Shown: positions 664 through 31,337 of the stretch, one piece after another | How the letters are laid out: the number at the start of each line of letters is the position of its first letter | Numbering within the stretch: the stretch's first letter is position 1 | Virus record (IMG/VR): IMGVR_UViG_3300009788_000183 | Coordinates: 1-40,253 of that record | Direction: 5' to 3' (one strand) | DNA length: 40,253 bases | Source: a virus | Made by a program: the position numbers and the translations under genes | The notes under the pieces: model-generated | Databases searched by the model: none | What the model saw: only the letters and a program-made list of their open reading frames with translations | What the model was told of the DNA's origin: nothing

Positions 664-1184
664 TGGCCAGTGGTGACACTTTATTCGTACTAGGACCGCT
701 AGGCTCATCTCCTCCATCAGCTAGCTTTGCCACGTTGGACACGATAGCGGACGCGTCAACCCCAACATTAATTATACCCGTGTTGGATTTCGACGGTTCT
801 GCCGACGAGCACATGGACTGGTTTCTAACTATTCCTAGCCACTACTCAGATACGACAGGCTTTACGTTCTCGTACAAGTACGCTGTCGACGGCACAGACG
901 TTGATATAGTTGAGATAGAGTTTCGCGTGCTGCATATCGACGATTTAGACATCTTGACTGGTGATTTGGGTATTGATACGCAGACCGCCGTTGCAGTTCA
1001 GGACACACCCGCGACCACGCCAATTAACAAAGTCAACTACTCAACAACCGGCACGCTGGCTAAGACTAATTTCGGCGATGCGGTGGCGGCCGATAGAATA
1101 GTCATTCGTGCGACCCGTGATGTGTCAGCCGCAACCAATACTGACGATTTACAATTGTTAGAAATATTAGTAACTGAAACCTAA
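663..1184 (+). CDS. beta-rich hypothetical virion protein
   Basis: 173 aa, ATG start overlapping the upstream stop. The sequence is rich in Thr, Asp and Ile/Val and alternates in a beta-sandwich manner (GFTFSYKYAVDGTDVDIVEIEF, RIVIRATRDVS, LQLLEILVTET). It has no signal peptide or membrane segment. It lies directly before a LamG-like gene, and a head-decoration or fibre-associated role is plausible but unproven. Confidence 0.65.
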   Translation: MASGDTLFVLGPLGSSPPSASFATLDTIADASTPTLIIPVLDFDGSADEHMDWFLTIPSHYSDTTGFTFSYKYAVDGTDVDIVEIEFRVLHIDDLDILTGDLGIDTQTAVAVQDTPATTPINKVNYSTTGTLAKTNFGDAVAADRIVIRATRDVSAATNTDDLQLLEILVTET

Positions 1185-1951
1185 TGGCGGTCAATCTATC
1201 CAACGGCGGACTTGACCACGCCCATTACGGAACGTCGGCATTGGTCGGCGGGTTAGCCACAATGTCTATTGCGGTAACGGTAAATATAACTGCGTTGGCA
1301 GACGCTGAAAGGCTTGTGATGAAGTGGGGCGGGGCTGCTGGCAACAATGTCTTTCTAGTAGCGATGCGTTCTGCCGATGAGATAGGGTTTCTTGTCTCTC
1401 ATGACGGCGGATCTCCACGATACGGAGAGCAGACTACAGACGCTAATTTGACGACGGGGTTACACAGGTTTGTTTTTACCTTTATCGACAACGACGTAAA
1501 TATATACGTCAACGGCGTTGCTGCCGGGATGACTGGATGGCTTGATGAAGGTGCTGTCACATCAATTACCAGCGACACGGGGGTCAATACATCTCTCTGT
1601 CAAGAAATTAACTCAGGGAACCCCGGCATAGATGGTGACTATTCGGAATTTGCGATATGGGGTATAGAACTGGACCCGGCAGTCGCTGTAGCCATTTCGA
1701 GCGGCTTTAGCCCAGAGTTATACCCTACAGGTAGGATTCTGTATGACTCACTGATAAATACAGGCACACCTGGCGATATCGTAGGTGGGATTGCAACGAC
1801 ATTTTCAGGCGCGGTAAACGCCGCTCATCCTTCGGTCTTTCACCCATCTGGTCAAATAATACCGTTCCCTTCTGCAGCGGCACCCGCTACGGCAGGATCA
1901 ATCATCCCCCCGCTGCAGCGCAAGCCGATTAGACACATGCTGGTGAGATAG
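1184..1951 (+). CDS. LamG/concanavalin-like virion protein
   Basis: 255 aa, ATG overlapping the upstream stop. Residues about 25-165 have the jelly-roll signature of LamG/ConA-like lectin domains: RLVMKWGGAAGNNVFLVAM, GLHRFVFTFIDNDVNIYVNGVAAG and a final SEFAIWGIELDPAVAVAIS helix-strand. These domains commonly bind sugars in phage adhesins and decoration proteins. The last 15 residues are Pro/Lys/Arg-rich (PPLQRKPIRHMLVR), resembling the RR-P motifs of the repeat protein at 2853-3701. Carbohydrate binding at the virion surface is an inference. Confidence 0.7.
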   Translation: MAVNLSNGGLDHAHYGTSALVGGLATMSIAVTVNITALADAERLVMKWGGAAGNNVFLVAMRSADEIGFLVSHDGGSPRYGEQTTDANLTTGLHRFVFTFIDNDVNIYVNGVAAGMTGWLDEGAVTSITSDTGVNTSLCQEINSGNPGIDGDYSEFAIWGIELDPAVAVAISSGFSPELYPTGRILYDSLINTGTPGDIVGGIATTFSGAVNAAHPSVFHPSGQIIPFPSAAAPATAGSIIPPLQRKPIRHMLVR

Positions 1952-10967: not shown

Positions 10968-11933
10968 ATGGCTATTGAAGCGAACACCTTTCTGACGTTT
11001 ACCGCCATTGGTAACCGTGAAGATCTATCTGACATGATCCACGACGTATCACCGACCGATCGTCCCTTCATGTCCAACGCCAAGACAACCCGATCCACAG
11101 CGGTTACCCACGAATGGCAAACAGACGTCCTCGCCGCTGCTGGGAACAACAAAGAGATTGAAGGTAACATCGCAACGGCTGATGCGCTTGTTCCTACGGT
11201 GCGTGTTTCTAACCGCTTACAGATTGCGCGAGCAGTCATCAGCGTGTCAGGTACACAGAATGCGGTCGACTCCGCTGGCCGTGCCGAAGAATCGGCCTAT
11301 CAGGTCATCAAGGCAGGTCGTGAGCTCACTCGAGATATGGAGTTCACCCTGACCCAAAACGCCGCAAGTTCTGCAGGTTCAGCCACGGTAGGACGCTCTC
11401 TTGCCGGTCTTGAGTCCTGGCTTGCAACCAACAAGACCTCGGTAGGTACGGGTACTGCCCAGACCACACCTGGTTTTGCTTCTGGTGATACGGTCTCTCC
11501 GACCGACTCCACGGTACTAGGCGCATTCACCGAAACCTCCCTGAAGGCCACCATTAAGCTGTGCTTCGATAACGGCGGTGACCCAACGATGGTGATGGTG
11601 AACTCGTTCAACAAGCAGACGGCTTCCGGCTTTGCTGGTAACGCTGCTGCCCGACGAGACACTGGAGACGCGAGAGTTCAGATCGTCGGTGCGGCGGATC
11701 TGTACATCTCTGACTTCGGCCAACTGGCTTTGGTGCCTAATCGGTTCCAACGCGAGGAAACGGCTTTCACCTTAGACTATGACTTCCTGGCGGTTTCCTA
11801 TCTGCGGAACATCCAGATGACGCCACTGTCACGGACGGGTGACGCTGAGCGGTCGATGTTGATCGCTGAGTACACACTTGAGGTAGAAAACGAGGTGGCC
11901 TCTGGTAAAGTCACTGATCTAACTACGTCGTAA
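10968..11933 (+). CDS. major capsid protein (DUF5309/SU10-like)
   Basis: 321 aa, ATG with GGAGG at 10957-10961. The N-terminus (FTAIGNREDLSDMIHDVSPT then DRPFMSN) and the THEWQTDVLAA and RAEESAYQVIKAGRELTRDM segments match the pattern of the SU10-type major capsid family (DUF5309), which has the HK97 fold. It forms the icosahedral shell. The gene is followed by a strong hairpin, consistent with separate control of this abundant product. Family assignment is from pattern memory, not a search. Confidence 0.85.
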   Translation: MAIEANTFLTFTAIGNREDLSDMIHDVSPTDRPFMSNAKTTRSTAVTHEWQTDVLAAAGNNKEIEGNIATADALVPTVRVSNRLQIARAVISVSGTQNAVDSAGRAEESAYQVIKAGRELTRDMEFTLTQNAASSAGSATVGRSLAGLESWLATNKTSVGTGTAQTTPGFASGDTVSPTDSTVLGAFTETSLKATIKLCFDNGGDPTMVMVNSFNKQTASGFAGNAAARRDTGDARVQIVGAADLYISDFGQLALVPNRFQREETAFTLDYDFLAVSYLRNIQMTPLSRTGDAERSMLIAEYTLEVENEVASGKVTDLTTS

Positions 11934-11993: not shown

Positions 11994-12140
11994 ATGGCTA
12001 TTGATACATCTCACGCTGAGAGCATGCCGCCGAGGATGAAGAAAGCCTCTAAGCTGCCACCCAATCTGAAGCCTGCATCACGGTTGCCACCGACGACCAA
12101 ACCGGCCTCTAAAAACCCTGCGCCGTTGAAGCACGCTTGA
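11994..12140 (+). CDS. 48-aa Lys/Pro decapeptide-repeat protein
   Basis: ATG with an excellent AAGGAG site 7-8 bases upstream. After a short head, the product consists of about three 10-residue repeats of KxASxxPxxx type: (K)KASKLPPNL, KPASRLPPTT, KPASKNPAPL. This is strongly basic and polyproline-like. Its strong ribosome site directly after the capsid hairpin suggests substantial expression; it may be a head-associated or nucleic-acid-binding peptide. The next gene starts on its stop (TTGA). Confidence 0.6.
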   Translation: MAIDTSHAESMPPRMKKASKLPPNLKPASRLPPTTKPASKNPAPLKHA

Positions 12141-12469
12141 GGTTCCTTGATTACGTCCCTGAGACCGGGATAGCTACCTATGTGGACTACGACCACGAGA
12201 CCAAGATATCCACGGTCATTGAGCGTCAGAACTGTGACGCGATCATTGAGCACAACAAACGCCTGATCTCTGATAACGAAGACACCACGAAGCAAGGGAT
12301 TAAGAAGGGTTGGATGCACCTCGGCACTATCCCACAGAACTTCATCCAGGAGTGTGCTTTAAAAACCGGTCTTGATCCTTTCTCGCGAGAGGGCATAAAC
12401 TGGCTAGTCAAGAAGATTCACGAACGAGACTTTAAGCTGCTCAAGGTAGCCAACGGGAAATTCATATGA
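12137..12469 (+). CDS. conserved capsid-adjacent protein
   Basis: 110 aa, TTG start overlapping the preceding TGA. The N-terminus RFLDYVPETGIATYVDYDHE, followed by a negatively charged segment and KQGIKKGWMHLGTIP, matches a pattern repeatedly found just downstream of phage major capsid genes, where DYxPETGI and KxGIKxxWxH are conserved. It has been viewed as a virion or head-assembly accessory; biochemical role unknown. Confidence 0.65.
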   Translation: MRFLDYVPETGIATYVDYDHETKISTVIERQNCDAIIEHNKRLISDNEDTTKQGIKKGWMHLGTIPQNFIQECALKTGLDPFSREGINWLVKKIHERDFKLLKVANGKFI

Positions 12470-12741
12470 TAGATCGAGAGAAAGTAGCTGAAACGATGAT
12501 TCCCTGTGACAGTTATTCCGGCTGGGCGGCTAAGTATCTGCGTGGTGATTTCGATTTCACTGACTTGTGGAAAGAAGTGAAAGGAATTCAGGCTGAAATA
12601 GTCCCGGGTAAGGTCGACGCGAGCCCCGTCGTGACCGTCGACGAGGAGGAAGTGGAGGATGAGCCGGAAGCAGAAGACCCTCGGGATGCAGAAATAGAGC
12701 GTCTGAGAGGTCTATTGACGGAGCAAGATGAGCAAGCCTAG
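12466..12741 (+). CDS. acidic hypothetical protein, 91 aa
   Basis: ATG overlapping the previous stop (ATGA). The first 40 residues include aromatic helical segments (SGWAAKYLRGDFDFTDLWKEV). The last 40 are a Glu/Asp-rich low-complexity tail (VDEEEVEDEPEAEDPRDAEI) ending in a leucine-containing charged helix. No family recognised; coupled to capsid-adjacent genes. Confidence 0.6.
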   Translation: MIDREKVAETMIPCDSYSGWAAKYLRGDFDFTDLWKEVKGIQAEIVPGKVDASPVVTVDEEEVEDEPEAEDPRDAEIERLRGLLTEQDEQA

Positions 12742-12904
12742 CTACATCATCGTTCAGGGAGACACACTCCCGGATCTGATAGTAGAGTGCAATAAATACC
12801 CAGAATACTATCCGTCTAGCCAACCTTATTTGGACGTAAAGAAAAAGCACAACCAAGTAATGTATCTACCGCATGCAAAGCCTAAACGGTGGTGGCATGG
12901 ATGA
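12728..12904 (+). CDS. 58-aa LysM-like peptide
   Basis: ATG 14 bases inside the preceding gene. The product begins YIIVQGDTLPDLIVECNKYP. The (Y)xVxxGDTL-hydrophobic-x-I pattern resembles the first half of a LysM peptidoglycan-binding domain, but it is too short for a complete one with certainty. The C-terminus is basic and aromatic (AKPKRWWHG). It overlaps the next gene by 8 bases. LysM identity is tentative. Confidence 0.5.
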   Translation: MSKPSYIIVQGDTLPDLIVECNKYPEYYPSSQPYLDVKKKHNQVMYLPHAKPKRWWHG

Positions 12905-14288
12905 ACGCCTAGAACAGGCAACCAACCTCGAAGACACAGACCCAGACCACGCCCTAACGCTCTGTTCCGATGTCTTAAACGAGGACAGAGACCACCCTGA
13001 GGCCATGTACATCGCCGCTCGCGTCCTGATGGGTGCTGGTAGAACGGGACTAGCTCACGCTCTGTATCGAAGATGTAATGAGATGAGCCCCCATAAGGCA
13101 GAGATACAGAACTCTCTGGGGCTAAGTGTTGAGCACACTGACCCTAAAGCGGCCCTAAACTACTACGAGAACGCGCTTCGTATTAAACCCGACTATTACC
13201 ACTCCCTGAACAATAAGGGCCTGATGCTTTTACGTAAAGGCAGACCAGATCTGTGCCTAAAGTACGCCGAGAAGTGCTTGGAGGTTAAGCCCGACTACAT
13301 CGGTGCCAATGTCAATAAGGCCACGGCGTTACTCATGCTGCGACGATGGAAAGAAGGCTGGGCCGAATACGCCAGTTCTCTAGGGGTTTCTCGCCTGCGT
13401 AGAGAGTACGGTGTACCTGATTGGAATGGTGAGAAAGGCACGATCGTTGTTTATGGGGAGCAAGGGATAGGCGATGAGATCCTATTCACCTCGTGTATCC
13501 CTGATTTGGTGAAGACAAATAAGGTGGTTATCGACTGTGACCCTCGATTAGTCGGTCTATTTCAACGTTCTTTCCCGAGCTGTGAAGTCTATGGAACGCG
13601 GTTTAAAGGCCAGACGCCCTTGATAAACGACCACAAAATTGACTATCAAGCGGCCATGGGCGACCTGCCCCGGTTCTTTCGCAATTCAGAGGAAGAGTTT
13701 CCGGGCACACCCTATCTAAAAGCTGACCCAGAGCGGTGTATTCAATGGCGGGCTCTATTTGATTCGCTGCCTCACGGTTCGAACAATCCAGTCATGAGGC
13801 GTAATCAGCCTAACGGGAAGAGAATAGGAATAGCGTGGCAAGGCGGCATTTTAAACACCGAGCGACACGCCCGCTCATTTGATTTAGATCTCTTCGCACC
13901 CCTGTTTGACCTGCCGCACACGTTCATCTCCCTCGAGTACGACGAACCAGACCTGAAAGGCTATCCGATCAGACACTTCGGCCGAGCTGTGAATAAGGGC
14001 GTTGATTACGATGAGACCATGGCGTTGATCGCTGAGTTAGATCTAGTTATTTGTGTCACCACCACGGCGGTACACGCTGCTGGTGCTCTCGGAGTAGAGT
14101 GCTGGTGTCTGACGCCTAAATATCCTTCTTACAGATTCCACTTAGACGGTGATATTCCCTGGCACAACTCGGTTGAACTTGTTAGACAAGTAGATACATG
14201 GGAAAATGTGATCACTGAGGTCAAGCAGAAATTGGAGGCTAAATGGTCACGAGGGTCTTCATCGGTTTCGATAGCCGCCAGCCAATAG
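12897..14288 (+). CDS. TPR-containing GT-B glycosyltransferase
   Basis: 463 aa from the ATG at 12897 (an in-frame ATG at 12873 would add 8 residues). Residues about 1-150 are TPR repeats (NYYENALRIKPDYYHSLNNK, CLKYAEKCLEVKPDYIGANV). Residues about 180-460 are a GT-B glycosyltransferase of GT9/GT41-like character: GEQGIGDEILFTSCIPDL near 187-204, GIAWQGG at 311-317, then ...LDLVICVTTTAVHAAGALGV at 381-400, where the nucleotide-sugar phosphate usually sits. It would transfer sugar to a protein or glycan acceptor. First gene of a modification cassette, 46 bases overlapping the next glycosyltransferase. Acceptor unknown. Confidence 0.82.
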   Translation: MDERLEQATNLEDTDPDHALTLCSDVLNEDRDHPEAMYIAARVLMGAGRTGLAHALYRRCNEMSPHKAEIQNSLGLSVEHTDPKAALNYYENALRIKPDYYHSLNNKGLMLLRKGRPDLCLKYAEKCLEVKPDYIGANVNKATALLMLRRWKEGWAEYASSLGVSRLRREYGVPDWNGEKGTIVVYGEQGIGDEILFTSCIPDLVKTNKVVIDCDPRLVGLFQRSFPSCEVYGTRFKGQTPLINDHKIDYQAAMGDLPRFFRNSEEEFPGTPYLKADPERCIQWRALFDSLPHGSNNPVMRRNQPNGKRIGIAWQGGILNTERHARSFDLDLFAPLFDLPHTFISLEYDEPDLKGYPIRHFGRAVNKGVDYDETMALIAELDLVICVTTTAVHAAGALGVECWCLTPKYPSYRFHLDGDIPWHNSVELVRQVDTWENVITEVKQKLEAKWSRGSSSVSIAASQ

Positions 14289-14899
14289 CTTTTTCAGTGC
14301 TCTCTCATTCGATTCTACGCCACGCAAGCGTACCCGTATCAATCACCCCACTTATCCTAGACACCCTCCCTATCACTCGTAAGGGCCTCACAGACTTCAC
14401 CTTCGCGCGCTACCTAGTGCCATGGCTATGTGACTATGAGGGGACGGGCATATTCATGGATTCCGACATGCTGCTTACCGCAGATGTGGCGGCGTTGGCT
14501 GTTGAAGATGAGTATAACGTTGCGCTCGTTCGTCACCCGTCCGCCGCTTATGAAGATACCTCAATGATGGTGTTTAACAACAAGCGATGCCGGACATTAA
14601 CCCCAGAATATATCGAAAACGATGCCCCCCAAACACTCGAATGGGCAGGCCCGATATATGAACTTCATCCAACCGCTAACTTTCTGGTCGGGTATGATGA
14701 ACCTTTCGGAGAGTCGAGCAGACTCCCTCATGTAATCCACTACACCCAAGGCATACCGGAATACAAAGAGTGCCGAGACTGCGACTACGCTGATTTGTGG
14801 TTTGAAGAAAAGGCAGCCATGTTACACAGCGTATCCTGGATAGAGATCATGGGGCAGTCAGTACACGCTGATCCTGTTCTAAAGCGTCTATGCTCATAA
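14243..14899 (+). CDS. GT-A (GT8-like) glycosyltransferase
   Basis: 218 aa, ATG inside the previous gene's last 46 bases. Starts RVFIGFDSRQPIAFSVLSHS, the typical start of family 8-like retaining glycosyltransferases. The metal-binding DxD is DSD at 73-75 in IFMDSDMLLTADVAAL, and downstream MMVFNN and HPTANFLVGYD are consistent with acceptor-side loops. A nucleotide-sugar-dependent transferase; substrate not predictable. It overlaps the methyltransferase by 10 bases, which suggests the three proteins modify one acceptor. Confidence 0.8.
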   Translation: MVTRVFIGFDSRQPIAFSVLSHSILRHASVPVSITPLILDTLPITRKGLTDFTFARYLVPWLCDYEGTGIFMDSDMLLTADVAALAVEDEYNVALVRHPSAAYEDTSMMVFNNKRCRTLTPEYIENDAPQTLEWAGPIYELHPTANFLVGYDEPFGESSRLPHVIHYTQGIPEYKECRDCDYADLWFEEKAAMLHSVSWIEIMGQSVHADPVLKRLCS

Positions 14900-15396
14900 G
14901 CGCTGAGTACCTCAATCAACAGCGCCAACTACACGAAAACCCGGACTACGGGACGGCGAGCGTTCACTACTGGCCGCTGATCCTTAAGCTAATCGATCAA
15001 CTAGACATCACCGAGGTACTGGACTACGGATGTGGCAAGGGCAAGTTAGCCGGTCTTCTTGAAGGTAGAAAGCTGTTAGTTCGCCAGTACGACCCTGTAT
15101 ATCTTGATCAACGCCAGCCTACCGAGATGGTGTGCTGCATCGATGTTTTAGAACATATCGAACCAGAGTGCTTAGATAGCGTCCTAGACGACCTGCAACG
15201 CCTCACACAGAGGATAGGTGTCTTCTCAGTACATACCGGGCAAGCCGCTAAAACACTCCCTGATGGCCGCAACGCGCACCTCATTCAAGAGGATTATCGC
15301 TGGTGGCTGCCTAAGATCATGGATCGATTCGAGATCTTCACCCTTTCTCATGAAATTCAAGGCGGTTTCTACGTGATAGTGAGAAAACTTGCCTGA
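14890..15396 (+). CDS. class I SAM-dependent methyltransferase
   Basis: 168 aa, ATG. SAM-binding motif I is EVLDYGCGKGKLAGLL (DYGCGKG at 45-51), followed by an acidic residue at the end of strand 2 (RQYDPVY), and the CCIDVLEHIEP motif (D85, H89) expected in small-molecule O- or C-methyltransferases of glycan pathways. There is no DNA-methylase (D/N/S)PPY motif. Coupled to the glycosyltransferases, so methylation of a sugar or capsid residue is likely; a nucleotide substrate is less likely. Confidence 0.8.
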   Translation: MLISAEYLNQQRQLHENPDYGTASVHYWPLILKLIDQLDITEVLDYGCGKGKLAGLLEGRKLLVRQYDPVYLDQRQPTEMVCCIDVLEHIEPECLDSVLDDLQRLTQRIGVFSVHTGQAAKTLPDGRNAHLIQEDYRWWLPKIMDRFEIFTLSHEIQGGFYVIVRKLA

Positions 15397-15457
15397 TGCA
15401 TTTCCACCCCTGACAGATTAAATTACCGCTCTCGATTGCCTATAACTGGAGAGGAAT

Positions 15458-16009
15458 ATGGCGGGGGAAGGGAGGTACGTCTATCGATTTTTAGACGTAG
15501 TAGGGGACGGGAGCGGTGTCTTAGATCTTGCGAGAGACCATTCCACGACAGAAGAGTTTTACCAAGTCGATCCGCCTGATCAAGGCTTCTTTGCTATCCA
15601 TCAACTGCTTATTCAAATACGATCGAGCGGTATGATGGCGGGGGACAGATACGGCGACCAACCGGAACTCACGAACGGTATCACCGTTGCCACCATCGAT
15701 CTTAACGACAATATCATTGTTGATTTGACCGATGGGCAACCGATCAAGAGTAACGGAGATTGGGCAGGCCAAGCCTATGATGCGACCCATTTAGAGTATG
15801 GTGCCGGCTCCCCGTCGGCTGATCAATTCTTAAGGATACGCTGGAGTTTTGCAGACGCCGGACAGCCGATTTACATCACCCAAGGCGAACGTTTCGCCGT
15901 CAAACTCGATGATGATTTTAGCGGATTGATCGCCCATAGTGCTCAAGTACAGGGTTTCTTCGGAATTTCTGCCAGAACACAGGAGTCGGGCATCATAAGG
16001 ATAAAATAG
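15458..16009 (+). CDS. hypothetical protein within glycosylation cassette
   Basis: 183 aa, ATG with GGAGAGG upstream, after a 61-base gap. Soluble, beta-rich and acidic (YVYRFLDVVGDGSGVLDLAR, ITVATIDLNDNIIVDLTDG, PIYITQGERFAVKLDDDF, GFFGISARTQESGIIRIK). It resembles small virion-surface beta-sandwich proteins but not any named family. Flanked by transferases on both sides and having its own strong ribosome site, it is a candidate acceptor (decoration protein) for the cassette. That role is an inference. Confidence 0.62.
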   Translation: MAGEGRYVYRFLDVVGDGSGVLDLARDHSTTEEFYQVDPPDQGFFAIHQLLIQIRSSGMMAGDRYGDQPELTNGITVATIDLNDNIIVDLTDGQPIKSNGDWAGQAYDATHLEYGAGSPSADQFLRIRWSFADAGQPIYITQGERFAVKLDDDFSGLIAHSAQVQGFFGISARTQESGIIRIK

Positions 16010-16023
16010 AGTATTATGGGTAG

Positions 16024-17220
16024 ATGAAGTGCGTCACCTCGTTCAGTGCCGAAGGCTATGAGAAATACGGCAAACGCTTTTTAGAAACATACGTCGAACA
16101 TCACGATATTCCCATTGATGTTTACATTGAAGATCCCTGCGACTTCGAACACCCCTTGATTACCTTGAAAGAGCTGTATCTGGTTCCCGGGTGCGTGGAT
16201 TTCCTACGAAAATGTAAGTTTCCCATCATGCACGGGGTCCAGCAGGACGGAGAAAGACTGTATCAGTACAACGCCGGCCGATTTTGCAGGAAGGTTTACG
16301 CTCAAATTTCCGCTTCTGAAGGTGAAACGGGCTGGCTTTACTGGTTAGACGCCGATATCGAGTTTAATCAACCGCTCCAATTCCCTGAAAAAGACACCTT
16401 TTTGCTCTATTTGGGCCGAGAACAACCCCATACGTGTACGAGTTTTGTCGGTTTTAACCTAGATCACCCGGCTTCCAAGAGTTTTTGGAAGATCTATCAG
16501 GACTTCTACGATAATGGACTCGTGTTTACCCTGCCTCACTGGCACGACTGCGCCGTTTTAGACGCCATACGTGAACTCACCGACCTCCCGGCTATAAGTC
16601 TCACCAGCGGCACCGGAAACGTGTTTGATACCGCTTTCCCGGGATGTCACCACGCCAAGGGGGTGTGGAAGCACAACTTTAAGAATCGATACCATGAACT
16701 CTATGATTTGGTGAAAAAGAGAAATCCATCCTCAGTGCTCGAGATAGGCACGCACGCGGGTAACAGTGCATTAGCGTTTTGTCGGCAAGGGGCCGAATAT
16801 GTGGGGTTTGATCTCTTCGAAGAGGCTACATACATCACCGACCTACAAGAGGGCAACGCTAAAGACCATCACTCTATGGAATTGGTATCGGGTCGACTTA
16901 AAGAAGCGGGGATTAAGCATACCCTGGTTCCTGGGAACACTCGAGAAACCCTTCCTGAGTATGTCGCAATGGGTGAGAAAAAGTTTGACTTCGCGTTTAT
17001 CGATGGTGGCCATTCTATTGAGACGATCGAAAGTGACTGGTTCCACGTGAAACAATTGATGAATCCAGGTGGGCTCGTGGTTTTTGATGACTATTACAGC
17101 CCTGCCAATGGGATTGGGTCTAATTCGATCGTAGAGAAACTAGACTATACTCTGCTGAATATGGCTGACAGAAATGGGGTGATTGGTGGGACAACTCGAA
17201 TGGCAATGGTAGAGGTTTAA
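16024..17220 (+). CDS. bifunctional GT-A glycosyltransferase-methyltransferase
   Basis: 398 aa, ATG 14 bases after the preceding stop. The N-terminal half (about 1-210) is GT-A-like: VTSFSAEGYEKYG at the start, GWLYWLDADIEF with DAD at 109-111, FVGFNLDHPA and a conserved LPHWHDCAVLDAI acceptor region. The C-terminal half (about 225-398) is a Rossmann SAM-methyltransferase: SSVLEIGTHAGNSALAF (motif I near 237-252), acidic GFDLFEE at 261-267, FDFAFIDGGHS at 321-331, and GGLVVFDDYY at 349-358 (Methyltransf_24-like). Joining both on one chain suggests sequential sugar transfer and methylation. Confidence 0.82.
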   Translation: MKCVTSFSAEGYEKYGKRFLETYVEHHDIPIDVYIEDPCDFEHPLITLKELYLVPGCVDFLRKCKFPIMHGVQQDGERLYQYNAGRFCRKVYAQISASEGETGWLYWLDADIEFNQPLQFPEKDTFLLYLGREQPHTCTSFVGFNLDHPASKSFWKIYQDFYDNGLVFTLPHWHDCAVLDAIRELTDLPAISLTSGTGNVFDTAFPGCHHAKGVWKHNFKNRYHELYDLVKKRNPSSVLEIGTHAGNSALAFCRQGAEYVGFDLFEEATYITDLQEGNAKDHHSMELVSGRLKEAGIKHTLVPGNTRETLPEYVAMGEKKFDFAFIDGGHSIETIESDWFHVKQLMNPGGLVVFDDYYSPANGIGSNSIVEKLDYTLLNMADRNGVIGGTTRMAMVEV

Positions 17221-17843
17221 TGGCGATTTCCACTTACCAAGAATTGAAAACCCTTATCCTCACTTGGACGCGTATCACCAATATCGATTCGGTGGTCGAT
17301 GATGTGATTGACATGTGTGAATCTCAGATATTCGGTAACGAATCCGAAGGGCTCCTGGTCAGAGAACTTGAGACCCGTGCTACCGCGGTCACCTCCACGT
17401 CTAATCGGTTTGTCGAGCTCCCGGTTAGATTCCTCAAGATGCGCCGGTTGAATATCACAACCACGAACGTGTCAGAGGTTTACCAGAAAGCCCCCGGAGC
17501 TCTGGTGATTCAAACAGGTTCGGCACGGCCTACCTACTTTTCAGCCGCCTCTCAAATCGAATTCGACATACAGCCGGACTCTGCCTATGACCTGGAGATG
17601 TTGTACTTCAAGCGCACCACGGCCCTAAGCGACACGGACACGACAAACACGGTGTTAACCAACTACCCAGACATCTATTTGCAGGGGTGCCTGTGGTGGG
17701 CTTACGACTTCTCAGGAGAAGAGATCAAGGCGGCTGAGCGTCAAAAGGCATTTTATGCTGCCATTCGAGGGGCAAATAAGAAAGATGTGAAAGGCCGCCA
17801 TGGCCCCGGACCTGTCCAAGCAACCGACAGGTCGACTCCGTGA
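17220..17843 (+). CDS. head-tail adaptor (P22 gp4 / SU10 adaptor-like)
   Basis: 207 aa, ATG overlapping the cassette's last stop. The N-terminus ISTYQELKTLILTWTRITNI and the long central helix-strand pattern match phage adaptor proteins that bind under the portal and start the tail. The C-terminus has YPDIYLQGCLWWAYDFSGEE then EIKAAERQKAFY, typical of these adaptors. It precedes a gp10-like gene exactly as in P22. Confidence 0.75.
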   Translation: MAISTYQELKTLILTWTRITNIDSVVDDVIDMCESQIFGNESEGLLVRELETRATAVTSTSNRFVELPVRFLKMRRLNITTTNVSEVYQKAPGALVIQTGSARPTYFSAASQIEFDIQPDSAYDLEMLYFKRTTALSDTDTTNTVLTNYPDIYLQGCLWWAYDFSGEEIKAAERQKAFYAAIRGANKKDVKGRHGPGPVQATDRSTP

Positions 17844-19252
17844 GTTTTGAAAACGTCCCGCTAAACATAGCCGGACCCTCTTACGAAGCTCGATCTGTCC
17901 CTGTTTCCGCTCAACGCACGGTTCATTTCTACCCGGAGCGAAACAAAGATGGGTTGAGCGAATTTATCTTGATGCCATGGCCTGGGAGAAAGGCATTTTC
18001 TGCCGGGGCTGGCGGAGAAGACCGAGGGATGCATGTTTTTCAGGATTTAATCTACAAGGTTTCCGGTACGACCTTATTTGAGATCGATTCGGCGGGTGTT
18101 CAGACATCAAGGGGATCTATAGCGGACACAAGGTTTTGTACGTTTGCCGACAACGGCACCACGATGATGATCACCAACGGGAACACGCCTTATTCGTTTA
18201 CCGGGACTGCCCTCACATTAGAAACCGCCATTACGACCAACCCAAGAGCGGTGACTTACTTAAACAGCCAGTTCATTTTAGATGGTGATGATGGTCTTTT
18301 CTCCACTTCCGACCCTAGCTCCACTACGTTTAACGCTTTGAACGTCGCAGAACCCGAAAGCGCCCCCGATCCACTCACTTTCCCGTTCGCTTACAATCAG
18401 ATTCTGGAATTATTCGGAACGAAAACTCTTGAGCCCTGGGACAATACAGGGACTGGTAACCCGCCCTTTGCGAGAATTGACGGCGGTATTGTGGAAGGGG
18501 TGGGTTGTTTAAGTCCTTATGGGGCAACCGTCACGCCAAACTTTATGTATTTTGTCTCGTTTGACGGCGTAGCCAACCGGGTCTCAGGTTTTAAGGCTGA
18601 ACCTATCACCCCTCCCGCTGTCTCGAGACTCTTCCAGACCTACAACCTCAGCACCTACAAGGCCTTTACGATCACCTTTGATGCACAGCGATTCGTTGTG
18701 TTTGCGTTCGATGAGGCGACCTGGGTGTTCTCAGAGCAGCTTAACCTGTTAAGTGACGATCCCTCGAAGTGGTGGTTCGAGCTAGAAGACCGGGGCAACA
18801 AATGGCCGGTAACGTCTTATGTAAATCACTTTGGCAAACGGCTCGCCGCGTCAGGTGGAGATGTGCTAGAGCTCGACTTCGACACGTTCACTGACGACGG
18901 AAATACAATCATCCGAGAACGAGTTTTAGCTGTAATTGCGGGTGAAACGTTCGGTGACCCTCGGAGATATCTGGAAATGTCCAAACTCTACCTGACCCTA
19001 GAAACGGGGGTGGGATTGAGCACAGGCCAAGGTGATGATCCTCAAATCATGGTCCAGGCATCCACGGACGGCGGAAAGACCTACGGTAAAGAAACCTGGA
19101 TCAGTACCGGGCGTTTAGGTGAGTTTAATACCGATGTAGAGTGGTCGAATCAAGTGCAATTTAAGCAGTTGGCTATTCGGCTGAGGATGAGCGACCCGAT
19201 TATGTGGGCGCTGTATAAAGCCTCGATCGACCTAAGAGAAGCAGGCTATTGA
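17840..19252 (+). CDS. packaged-DNA stabilisation protein (P22 gp10-like)
   Basis: 470 aa, GTG start overlapping the adaptor's stop (GTGA). The N-terminus VPLNIAGPSYEARSVPVSAQ, then RTVHFYPE, is characteristic of the Phage_stabilise family, whose P22 member gp10 is a hexameric beta-propeller tail hub component. Propeller-like repeats throughout (RGMHVFQDLIYKVSG, FILDGDDGLFSTSD, MYFVSFDGVANRVSGFK, WVFSEQLNLLSDDPSKWWF). It seals the filled head and contacts fibres and needle. Confidence 0.88.
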   Translation: MSFENVPLNIAGPSYEARSVPVSAQRTVHFYPERNKDGLSEFILMPWPGRKAFSAGAGGEDRGMHVFQDLIYKVSGTTLFEIDSAGVQTSRGSIADTRFCTFADNGTTMMITNGNTPYSFTGTALTLETAITTNPRAVTYLNSQFILDGDDGLFSTSDPSSTTFNALNVAEPESAPDPLTFPFAYNQILELFGTKTLEPWDNTGTGNPPFARIDGGIVEGVGCLSPYGATVTPNFMYFVSFDGVANRVSGFKAEPITPPAVSRLFQTYNLSTYKAFTITFDAQRFVVFAFDEATWVFSEQLNLLSDDPSKWWFELEDRGNKWPVTSYVNHFGKRLAASGGDVLELDFDTFTDDGNTIIRERVLAVIAGETFGDPRRYLEMSKLYLTLETGVGLSTGQGDDPQIMVQASTDGGKTYGKETWISTGRLGEFNTDVEWSNQVQFKQLAIRLRMSDPIMWALYKASIDLREAGY

Positions 19253-31066: not shown

Positions 31067-31093
31067 TTCGCCTTCGTCCTAATCAATGACACC

Positions 31094-31157
31094 ACTCTAC
31101 CAAACAGGCACAACCTGCGCAAGTAGTTCTTGCTATTCTATTTCAGGTGTGGATAAT
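31094..31157. promoter_or_regulatory. divergent promoters with shared dyad operator
   Basis: Rightward promoter: TTGCTA (31130-31135), 16-base spacer, GATAAT (31152-31157). Leftward promoter, read on the minus strand: TTGCGC (31117-31122), 17-base spacer, TAGAGT (31094-31099). Between and overlapping the two -35 boxes is a dyad GCAAG-TAGTT-CTTGC at 31119-31133; each arm contains part of one -35. The rightward promoter would start transcription about at the ATG of the Cro/YdaS-like gene (31164). The dyad is the natural operator for that protein, but this is inferred. Confidence 0.5.
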
Positions 31158-31163
31158 GCAATC

Positions 31164-31337
31164 ATGGAAATACAAAAAATTATCGCAAAGGCCGGAGGCC
31201 CAGTAGCCCTCGCTAGAGAGTTGGGAATAACACATCAAGCAATCGGAGACTGGAAAAAAGTCCCTGGCACTCGAGTAAAGCAGGTTGCTGAGTTGACCGG
31301 GCTTTTACCGAAAACGATTCGACCGGACATATTTTGA
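31164..31337 (+). CDS. Cro/YdaS-like DNA-binding protein
   Basis: 57 aa from the ATG at 31164. The HTH is visible as AGGPVALARELGITHQAIGD plus WKKVP (helices 2-3), followed by RVKQVAELTGLLPKTIRPDI, the C-terminal pattern of YdaS/Cro-type repressors. An earlier in-frame ATG at 31086 lies upstream of the promoter and is rejected. No ribosome site precedes 31164 and the predicted transcript start is at or within a few bases of it, so a leaderless mRNA is possible. Likely regulates the divergent promoter. Confidence 0.75.
   Translation: MEIQKIIAKAGGPVALARELGITHQAIGDWKKVPGTRVKQVAELTGLLPKTIRPDIF

What the first reader, a model, noticed from the sequence alone, without database searches (positions are those of the whole stretch)
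12897..17220. Glycosyltransferase-methyltransferase cassette inserted in the virion-assembly module
Four transferase genes (TPR-GT-B, GT-A/GT8-like, SAM methyltransferase, and a GT-A/methyltransferase fusion) sit between the capsid block and the P22-type adaptor gene. They overlap one another at 12897-15396 and surround one unknown beta-rich gene with its own strong ribosome site (15458-16009). Their place in the structural region rather than among early genes suggests modification of virion proteins, or of the receptor-facing surface, with a methylated glycan. DNA-base glycosylation is less likely because no hydroxymethylation genes are visible.
Basis: partly seen in the sequence, partly recalled or inferred. 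Interest (0 to 1): 0.85.

Follow-up and report, generated by a model that had tools for sequence, protein, structure and literature searches.

The report
Phage capsid-gene sugar-transfer module
Next to its capsid gene this uncultivated bacterial virus carries an old, conserved set of sugar- and methyl-transfer genes, led by an enzyme built like those that attach sugars to proteins, so the virus probably decorates its own particle with a sugar; this was not measured.

Summary
Between the SU10-type major capsid gene and the SU10-type adaptor gene lie a TPR+GT-B protein, a GT-A protein, a methyltransferase, a beta-rich protein and a GT-A/methyltransferase fusion. The word 'inserted' is mostly wrong. 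IMG/VR relatives chosen mainly by TPR-GT sequence form 64 clusters; 33 of 42 have the SU10-type capsid gene within 3 kb upstream and 31 of 35 the adaptor within 5 kb downstream. Most exceptions appear to carry a different capsid family in the same gene order. On a capsid tree the TPR-GT phages are one clade. Only the beta-rich gene and the fusion are later additions. Other phages carry unrelated transferases, or nothing, in the same slot. The TPR-GT model (pLDDT 94) resembles the protein glycosyltransferases OGT and SPINDLY as a whole and GT9 in its catalytic half. Eleven of 74 chromosomal bacterial homologues lie near type IV pilin genes. I conclude that the module most likely glycosylates a virion protein, with the TPR arm choosing the acceptor and the methyltransferases finishing the glycan. 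The acceptor and the sugar are unknown; a Ser/Thr-rich capsid loop is a post hoc candidate. Virion glycosylation is known, so this is a new variant.

The parts
10968..11933 (+). Major capsid protein, SU10-type; possible acceptor
   Evidence: SU10_MCP 1.9e-80, phrog_1328 5.6e-83; solved relatives 9ny2 and 7z45
11427..11513 (+). Ser/Thr-rich variable loop of the capsid protein (residues 154-182, with T166-T167-P168): candidate acceptor site, hypothesis only
   Evidence: [ST][ST]P in this region in 24 of 29 capsid proteins of TPR-GT phages against 2 of 28 without a transferase; loop S/T 9.5 against 5.5; post hoc, and one clade contrast
12137..12469 (+). sm110, small head-region gene (start codon uncertain); left boundary of the transferase slot, present with or without transferases
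   Evidence: phrog_3982 8e-5; syntenic in nearly all relatives
12466..12741 (+). 91-aa acidic ORF between sm110 and the TPR-GT, no family
12728..12904 (+). 58-aa ORF overlapping the TPR-GT start; a 59-aa ORF lies at the same place in L145 (not aligned)
12897..14288 (+). TPR-GT: TPR repeats (about residues 1-165) plus GT-B domain (about 176-450)
   Evidence: Pfam TPR; AF2 mean pLDDT 94.1, pTM 0.90; OGT/SPINDLY whole-chain and GT9 domain matches; GEQGxGDE motif nearly invariant in 53 homologues
14243..14899 (+). GT-A glycosyltransferase candidate with DxD (FMDSDM)
   Evidence: phrog_28018 7e-13; homologues annotated glycosyltransferase; alignment
14890..15396 (+). SAM methyltransferase, phrog_24759 family
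   Evidence: motif I kept in 54 of 55 relatives
15458..16009 (+). Beta-rich protein with its own strong ribosome site; virion or cassette protein, function unknown
   Evidence: no hit, nothing significant; relatives at E 1e-33 in L306 and L307; in L307 it sits between capsid and tail genes next to a phrog_24759 methyltransferase
16024..17220 (+). Fusion of a GT-A-like domain and Methyltransf_24
   Evidence: Methyltransf_24 1.6e-15; the halves are two separate neighbouring genes in L047
17220..17843 (+). SU10-type adaptor; right boundary of the slot
   Evidence: PF24175 6.5e-22
17840..19252 (+). Head closure Hc3-like protein
   Evidence: phrog_578 2e-71

Best explanation
The module glycosylates a structural protein of the virion, most likely a head protein, during late assembly. 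The TPR arm of the TPR-GT (gene 1) holds the acceptor protein and its GT9-like GT-B domain attaches the first sugar. The GT-A protein (gene 2) extends the glycan. The methyltransferase (gene 3) and, in this phage, the added GT-A/methyltransferase fusion (gene 5) extend and O-methylate it. Shown here: gene content, architecture, conservation, purifying selection, fixed place next to capsid genes, and pilin-adjacent bacterial homologues. Inferred: that the acceptor is a protein, that it is a virion protein, the order of the steps, and methylation of the glycan rather than of the protein.
For: (1) Position: of 64 TPR-GT clusters, 33/42 with >=3 kb upstream have the SU10-type capsid gene within 3 kb, and 31/35 with >=5 kb downstream have the adaptor within 5 kb. 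Most exceptions carry a ~350-aa ORF at the capsid position; two were confirmed as a different capsid family, phrog_334, and ctDrO704 as Phage_capsid_3. The phage TPR-GTs form one clade across both capsid types, with a capsid-type change inside it, so the place was kept when the capsid family changed. (2) Selection: dN/dS 0.03-0.17 for the TPR-GT where estimable, close to capsid and adaptor. (3) Architecture: best whole-chain fold matches are the TPR-GT-B protein glycosyltransferases OGT and SPINDLY; the GT-B part matches GT9 3tov, Z 17.1, 249 residues, 3.4 A. In FlmG the TPR part binds flagellin and the GT-B part transfers the sugar (PMC7591256). (4) Bacterial homologues: type IV pilin is the commonest family among sampled neighbour genes; 11 of 74 non-phage loci have a type IV pilin within 1 kb, and one (L316) has TPR-GT, MT and GT-A homologues together with pilin genes. 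(5) Unrelated transferases occupy the same slot: Anp1-like GT-A families and a sulfotransferase-like gene, plus cassettes in other capsid types. (6) Soluble proteins without a convincing membrane segment; overlapping genes and no convincing internal promoter imply late co-expression with virion genes. (7) Capsid loop of TPR-GT phages richer in S/T (post hoc).
Against: No glycan was measured. Synteny within one clade is not many independent events. Many related phages live without any recognised transferase in the slot (28 of 36 capsid clusters with an adaptor in view), so the function is dispensable in the wider group. The GT-A family also occurs outside structural regions, e.g. Pelagibacter phage Mosig. 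Most bacterial loci do not show a pilin neighbour (63 of 74). No whole-protein superposition on OGT is good (rmsd ~15 A, domain arrangement differs).
Confidence: 0.7

Rival explanations
1. The enzymes glycosylate a host surface protein (for instance a pilin or flagellin) or other host receptor, blocking superinfection or changing adsorption.
For: Bacterial homologues sit beside type IV pilin genes; the window has a Cro/YdaS-like regulator, so a temperate lifestyle is possible.
Against: The place is tied to the capsid gene across two capsid families inside a late operon with no convincing own promoter; superinfection genes are usually free of such a link (established knowledge).
Confidence: 0.12
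2. The enzymes modify host LPS or another polysaccharide (serotype-conversion type or host pathway genes carried by chance).
For: The catalytic half resembles GT9, the family of LPS heptosyltransferases.
Against: No membrane segments; no flippase or polyprenyl-glucosyl-transferase genes among the families found in the proteins scanned; TPR arm; strong conservation and capsid linkage exclude carriage by chance.
Confidence: 0.08
3. The enzymes glycosylate phage DNA bases.
For: Phage glycosyltransferases of DNA exist (established knowledge).
Against: No hydroxymethylase, thymidylate-synthase-like or other hypermodification gene in the proteins scanned (small ORFs not all scanned); genes sit in the morphogenesis block; the TPR arm and OGT-like layout point to protein.
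Confidence: 0.03
4. The genes are a neutral or mobile cargo recently inserted, without a steady function.
For: The slot is empty in many relatives; one cassette (ctDrO704) carries an HNH endonuclease; two genes here are later additions.
Against: Purifying selection and clade-wide retention; conserved catalytic motifs.
Confidence: 0.04

Closest known systems
FlmG of Caulobacter crescentus (flagellin glycosyltransferase; PMC7591256)
   Same: N-terminal TPR plus C-terminal GT-B; TPR arm binds the structural protein that the GT part glycosylates
   Different: FlmG works on flagellin and transfers pseudaminic acid; here the gene sits with capsid genes in a phage, and acceptor and sugar are unknown
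O-GlcNAc transferase and SPINDLY (GT41)
   Same: TPR arm followed by GT-B; best whole-chain fold matches
   Different: No GT41 Pfam hit; catalytic half fits GT9 well; shorter TPR arm; different domain arrangement
Glycosylated mycobacteriophages (Freeman et al. 2023, known here only through PMC12619734 and PMC12691614)
   Same: Phage virions whose capsid and tail-tube subunits carry glycans
   Different: No mycobacteriophage among the tblastn hits of genes 1, 2, 3 or 5; the TPR-guided design is not described in the passages read
GT9 (heptosyltransferase) family, e.g. 3tov
   Same: GT-B domain fold (Z 17.1 over 249 residues); a GxGDE motif similar to the GT9 GD motif (from memory)
   Different: No Glyco_transf_9 Pfam hit at E<1; fused to TPR; linked to structural genes rather than LPS genes
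Cassettes of other phages in the capsid-connector interval (ctDrO704; Tetraselmis viridis virus S20; CRP-9)
   Same: Glycosyltransferases and/or phrog_24759-type methyltransferase between capsid and connector genes
   Different: Different gene sets and capsid families; annotated gene by gene, not recognised as one system as far as found here

Membership tests
Virion glycosylation system | Phage-encoded glycosyltransferase genes linked to structural genes | tested here: met
Virion glycosylation system | Glycan on a virion protein | not testable with these tools
   needs mass spectrometry
TPR-guided protein glycosyltransferase (FlmG/OGT type) | TPR arm fused to a GT-B catalytic domain | tested here: met
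   Pfam TPR; AF2 model and fold search
TPR-guided protein glycosyltransferase (FlmG/OGT type) | TPR arm binds the acceptor protein | not testable with these tools
   needs two-hybrid or pull-down
GT41 (OGT) | GT41 sequence signature (PF13844) | tested here: not met
   no PF13844 hit at E<1
GT9 | Glyco_transf_9 sequence signature | tested here: not met
   no Pfam hit at E<1 for the window protein
GT9 | GT9 fold of the catalytic domain | tested here: met
   3tov Z 17.1, rmsd 3.4, 249 residues
DNA-base glycosylation pathway | Base hydroxymethylation genes beside the glycosyltransferase | tested here: not met
   none in the proteins scanned; not every small ORF was scanned
Serotype-conversion (Gtr-type) cluster | Membrane glycosyltransferase with flippase and bactoprenol glucosyltransferase | tested here: not met
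   no convincing membrane segment, no such families found

The most novel reading that the evidence does not exclude
A large, essentially uncultivated lineage of short-tailed phages carries a capsid-addressed TPR glycosyltransferase system in which the TPR arm reads the phage's own capsid (or another head protein) and which has stayed next to the capsid gene through a change of capsid family, while bacterial relatives of the same enzymes are addressed to type IV pilin: one toolkit for decorating whatever protein shell or fibre it is encoded with.
Probability: 0.5. Interest if true: 0.72.

Novelty: new variant of a known kind. Interest (0 to 1): 0.62.

Why it matters
Glycosylated phage particles are documented in few phages, and how the right protein is chosen is an open question.

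Tried and rejected
Pattern scans for the GT-A/MT fusion and the beta-rich gene in viral contigs found no relative; a degenerate motif (DLTDGxxIKxNxDW), recalled as typical of such phage proteins, found five. 'Recent insertion of the whole block' was rejected. A sharp compositional boundary was sought and not seen: GC drifts only from 0.51 to 0.48 over the added genes. The S/T-rich capsid loop was found after looking at the data; the TPR-GT contrast is a single clade on the tree. The Anp1-type acquisitions inferred on the capsid tree also lie towards the high side, which is suggestive and not a test. Freeman et al. 2023 could not be read. Literature searches found no paper describing this TPR-GT/capsid linkage, but only open-licence papers are held. 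L307's 184-aa neighbour of the beta-rich gene has no Pfam or PHROG hit and was left unnamed.
Full report
What is there. The window is an IMG/VR virus record of 40,253 bases with a short-tailed-phage gene order: terminase 5113, portal 7233, scaffold 10031, SU10-type capsid 10968, small genes, transferase block 12897-17220, SU10-type adaptor 17220, head closure 17840. Gene 1 (12897-14288) is TPR repeats followed by a GT-B domain; gene 2 (14243-14899) a GT-A candidate with a DxD motif; gene 3 (14890-15396) a methyltransferase of phrog_24759; gene 4 (15458-16009) a beta-rich protein; gene 5 (16024-17220) a GT-A-like domain fused to Methyltransf_24. Most of the genes overlap or nearly touch, the last one overlaps the adaptor start by one base, and no convincing promoter lies inside, so they are probably made with the virion proteins.

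Old or new. I collected relatives chosen by the TPR-GT sequence, added the TPR-GT copies in loci found through other queries, and merged those at 90% identity: 64 clusters, the window included. Of 42 with at least 3 kb of upstream sequence, 33 have the SU10-type capsid gene within 3 kb; of 35 with at least 5 kb downstream, 31 have the adaptor within 5 kb. The usual order is portal, scaffold, capsid, sm110, TPR-GT, other transferases, adaptor, head closure. Most exceptions have a ~350-aa ORF at the capsid position; L070 and L088 were confirmed as phrog_334 major head proteins and ctDrO704 as Phage_capsid_3; the others look alike by eye. Conversely, among capsid-selected relatives 36 clusters show both capsid and adaptor: 28 have no recognised transferase between, three a 434-aa and one a 211-aa Anp1-like glycosyltransferase, one a sulfotransferase-like gene (by eye), three the TPR-GT set. 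On a capsid tree all TPR-GT phages form one clade with full bootstrap support, and the Anp1-type occupants need three changes. So the slot between sm110 and the adaptor repeatedly takes up glycan enzymes, and in this clade the TPR-GT has been kept. In the nearest relative (L145, 61-64% identical TPR-GT and GT-A) TPR-GT, GT-A, MT and adaptor follow each other with overlaps; the beta-rich gene and the fusion are therefore later additions in the window, between MT and adaptor, or were lost there; no other relative seen has them in this form. In L047 the two halves of the fusion are separate adjacent genes, which argues that they act in one pathway.

Is it functional. Nei-Gojobori dN/dS between relatives, where dS could be estimated, is 0.03-0.17 for the TPR-GT, 0.05-0.30 for the GT-A and 0.09-0.11 for the methyltransferase, against 0.025-0.135 for the capsid protein. 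Motifs are kept: the GEQGxGDE motif is nearly invariant among 53 TPR-GTs, and methyltransferase motif I is present in 54 of 55.

What gene 1 does. The AlphaFold model (53 sequences, pLDDT 94.1, pTM 0.90) has as best whole-chain matches the TPR-containing protein glycosyltransferases OGT and SPINDLY (Foldseek E about 1e-11 to 1e-9; VIA Z about 20, with a poor overall rmsd because the domains are arranged differently). The GT-B domain alone fits GT9 3tov (Z 17.1, 3.4 A over 249 residues). The design is that of FlmG, whose TPR part binds flagellin and is needed for efficient glycosylation by the GT-B part (PMC7591256). Chromosomal bacterial relatives support a protein acceptor: among sampled neighbour genes pilin is the commonest family, and 11 of 74 non-phage loci have a type IV pilin within 1 kb, mostly directly downstream, with no such ORF found in 3.1 Mb of phage loci. 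One of these, a Burkholderiales locus (L316), carries TPR-GT, methyltransferase and GT-A homologues together beside pilin genes. In a tree of the GT domain the phage proteins form one clade apart from the bacterial ones, spanning both capsid types with a capsid-type change inside.

Which protein is the acceptor. Not known. The link is to the capsid gene, so a head protein is the first candidate. The variable loop of the capsid protein has more Ser/Thr in TPR-GT phages (9.5 against 5.5 residues) and a [ST][ST]P motif in 24 of 29 against 2 of 28. This was noticed after the fact and the TPR-GT phages are a single clade, so it is a hypothesis. The beta-rich protein (gene 4) is another candidate: some of its relatives lie among phage structural genes, in one case (L307) between a third capsid type and the tail genes and directly beside a phrog_24759 methyltransferase.

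Rivals. Modification of a host surface protein is the strongest rival because of the pilin link and the possible temperate lifestyle (Cro/YdaS-like regulator). Polysaccharide modification and DNA glycosylation are less likely: no convincing membrane segments, no base-modification genes in the proteins scanned, and the TPR arm. Carriage without function is disfavoured by selection.

Novelty. Glycosylated virions are known from mycobacteriophages (Freeman et al. 2023, cited in PMC12619734 and PMC12691614). TPR-guided glycosylation of a structural protein is known from FlmG. Their combination as a capsid-linked, clade-wide module in uncultivated phages, with pilin-linked bacterial relatives, was not found in the papers searched. 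I file it as a new variant of a known kind.

Limits. Relatives were taken from the 80 best matches per scan, so distant contexts are undersampled; contigs are fragments; the ORF calls are mechanical; the counts come from related phages and are not independent events; the independent supports are the capsid-type change with position kept, the unrelated enzymes in the same slot, and the pilin link.

Noticed in passing
L311, L312, L316, L319, L325-L328, L333, L336, L340: Chromosomal TPR-GT homologues in beta- and gammaproteobacteria (e.g. Methylococcus capsulatus Texas) lie within 1 kb of type IV pilin genes, sometimes with MT and GT-A homologues: a possible pilin glycosylation system.
   Followed up: partly
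L310, L323, L378: Phage or prophage copies of the module in Acidobacteria, Bradyrhizobium and Thiotrichaceae assemblies, giving host leads for isolation.
   Followed up: partly
L307 (198-9200) and L304: A phage with a third capsid family (phrog_3437) has a beta-rich-gene relative and a phrog_24759-type methyltransferase between capsid and tail genes.
   Followed up: partly
L014-L039, L050, L054; L004-L010, L020, L283: Two Anp1-like GT-A families occupy the same sm110-adaptor slot in other phages of this group.
   Followed up: partly
L046:5849-6559: Sulfotransferase-like gene (by eye, no Pfam or PHROG hit) between the capsid gene and sm110.
   Followed up: no
L088:7064-8008: Protein with a radical-SAM-like cysteine motif (by eye) inside a TPR-GT cassette.
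   Followed up: no
window 31086-31337: YdaS/Cro-like regulator next to minus-strand genes; possible lysogeny switch, no integrase seen in the proteins scanned.
   Followed up: no
window 1184-1951: Concanavalin A-like lectin domain protein (Laminin_G_3) upstream of the terminase, near a fibre-like gene at 2853.
   Followed up: no
MW202615.1 1087-1539 (L309): Unannotated relative of the beta-rich protein beside the terminase small subunit gene of a Manatee Spring phage.
   Followed up: no
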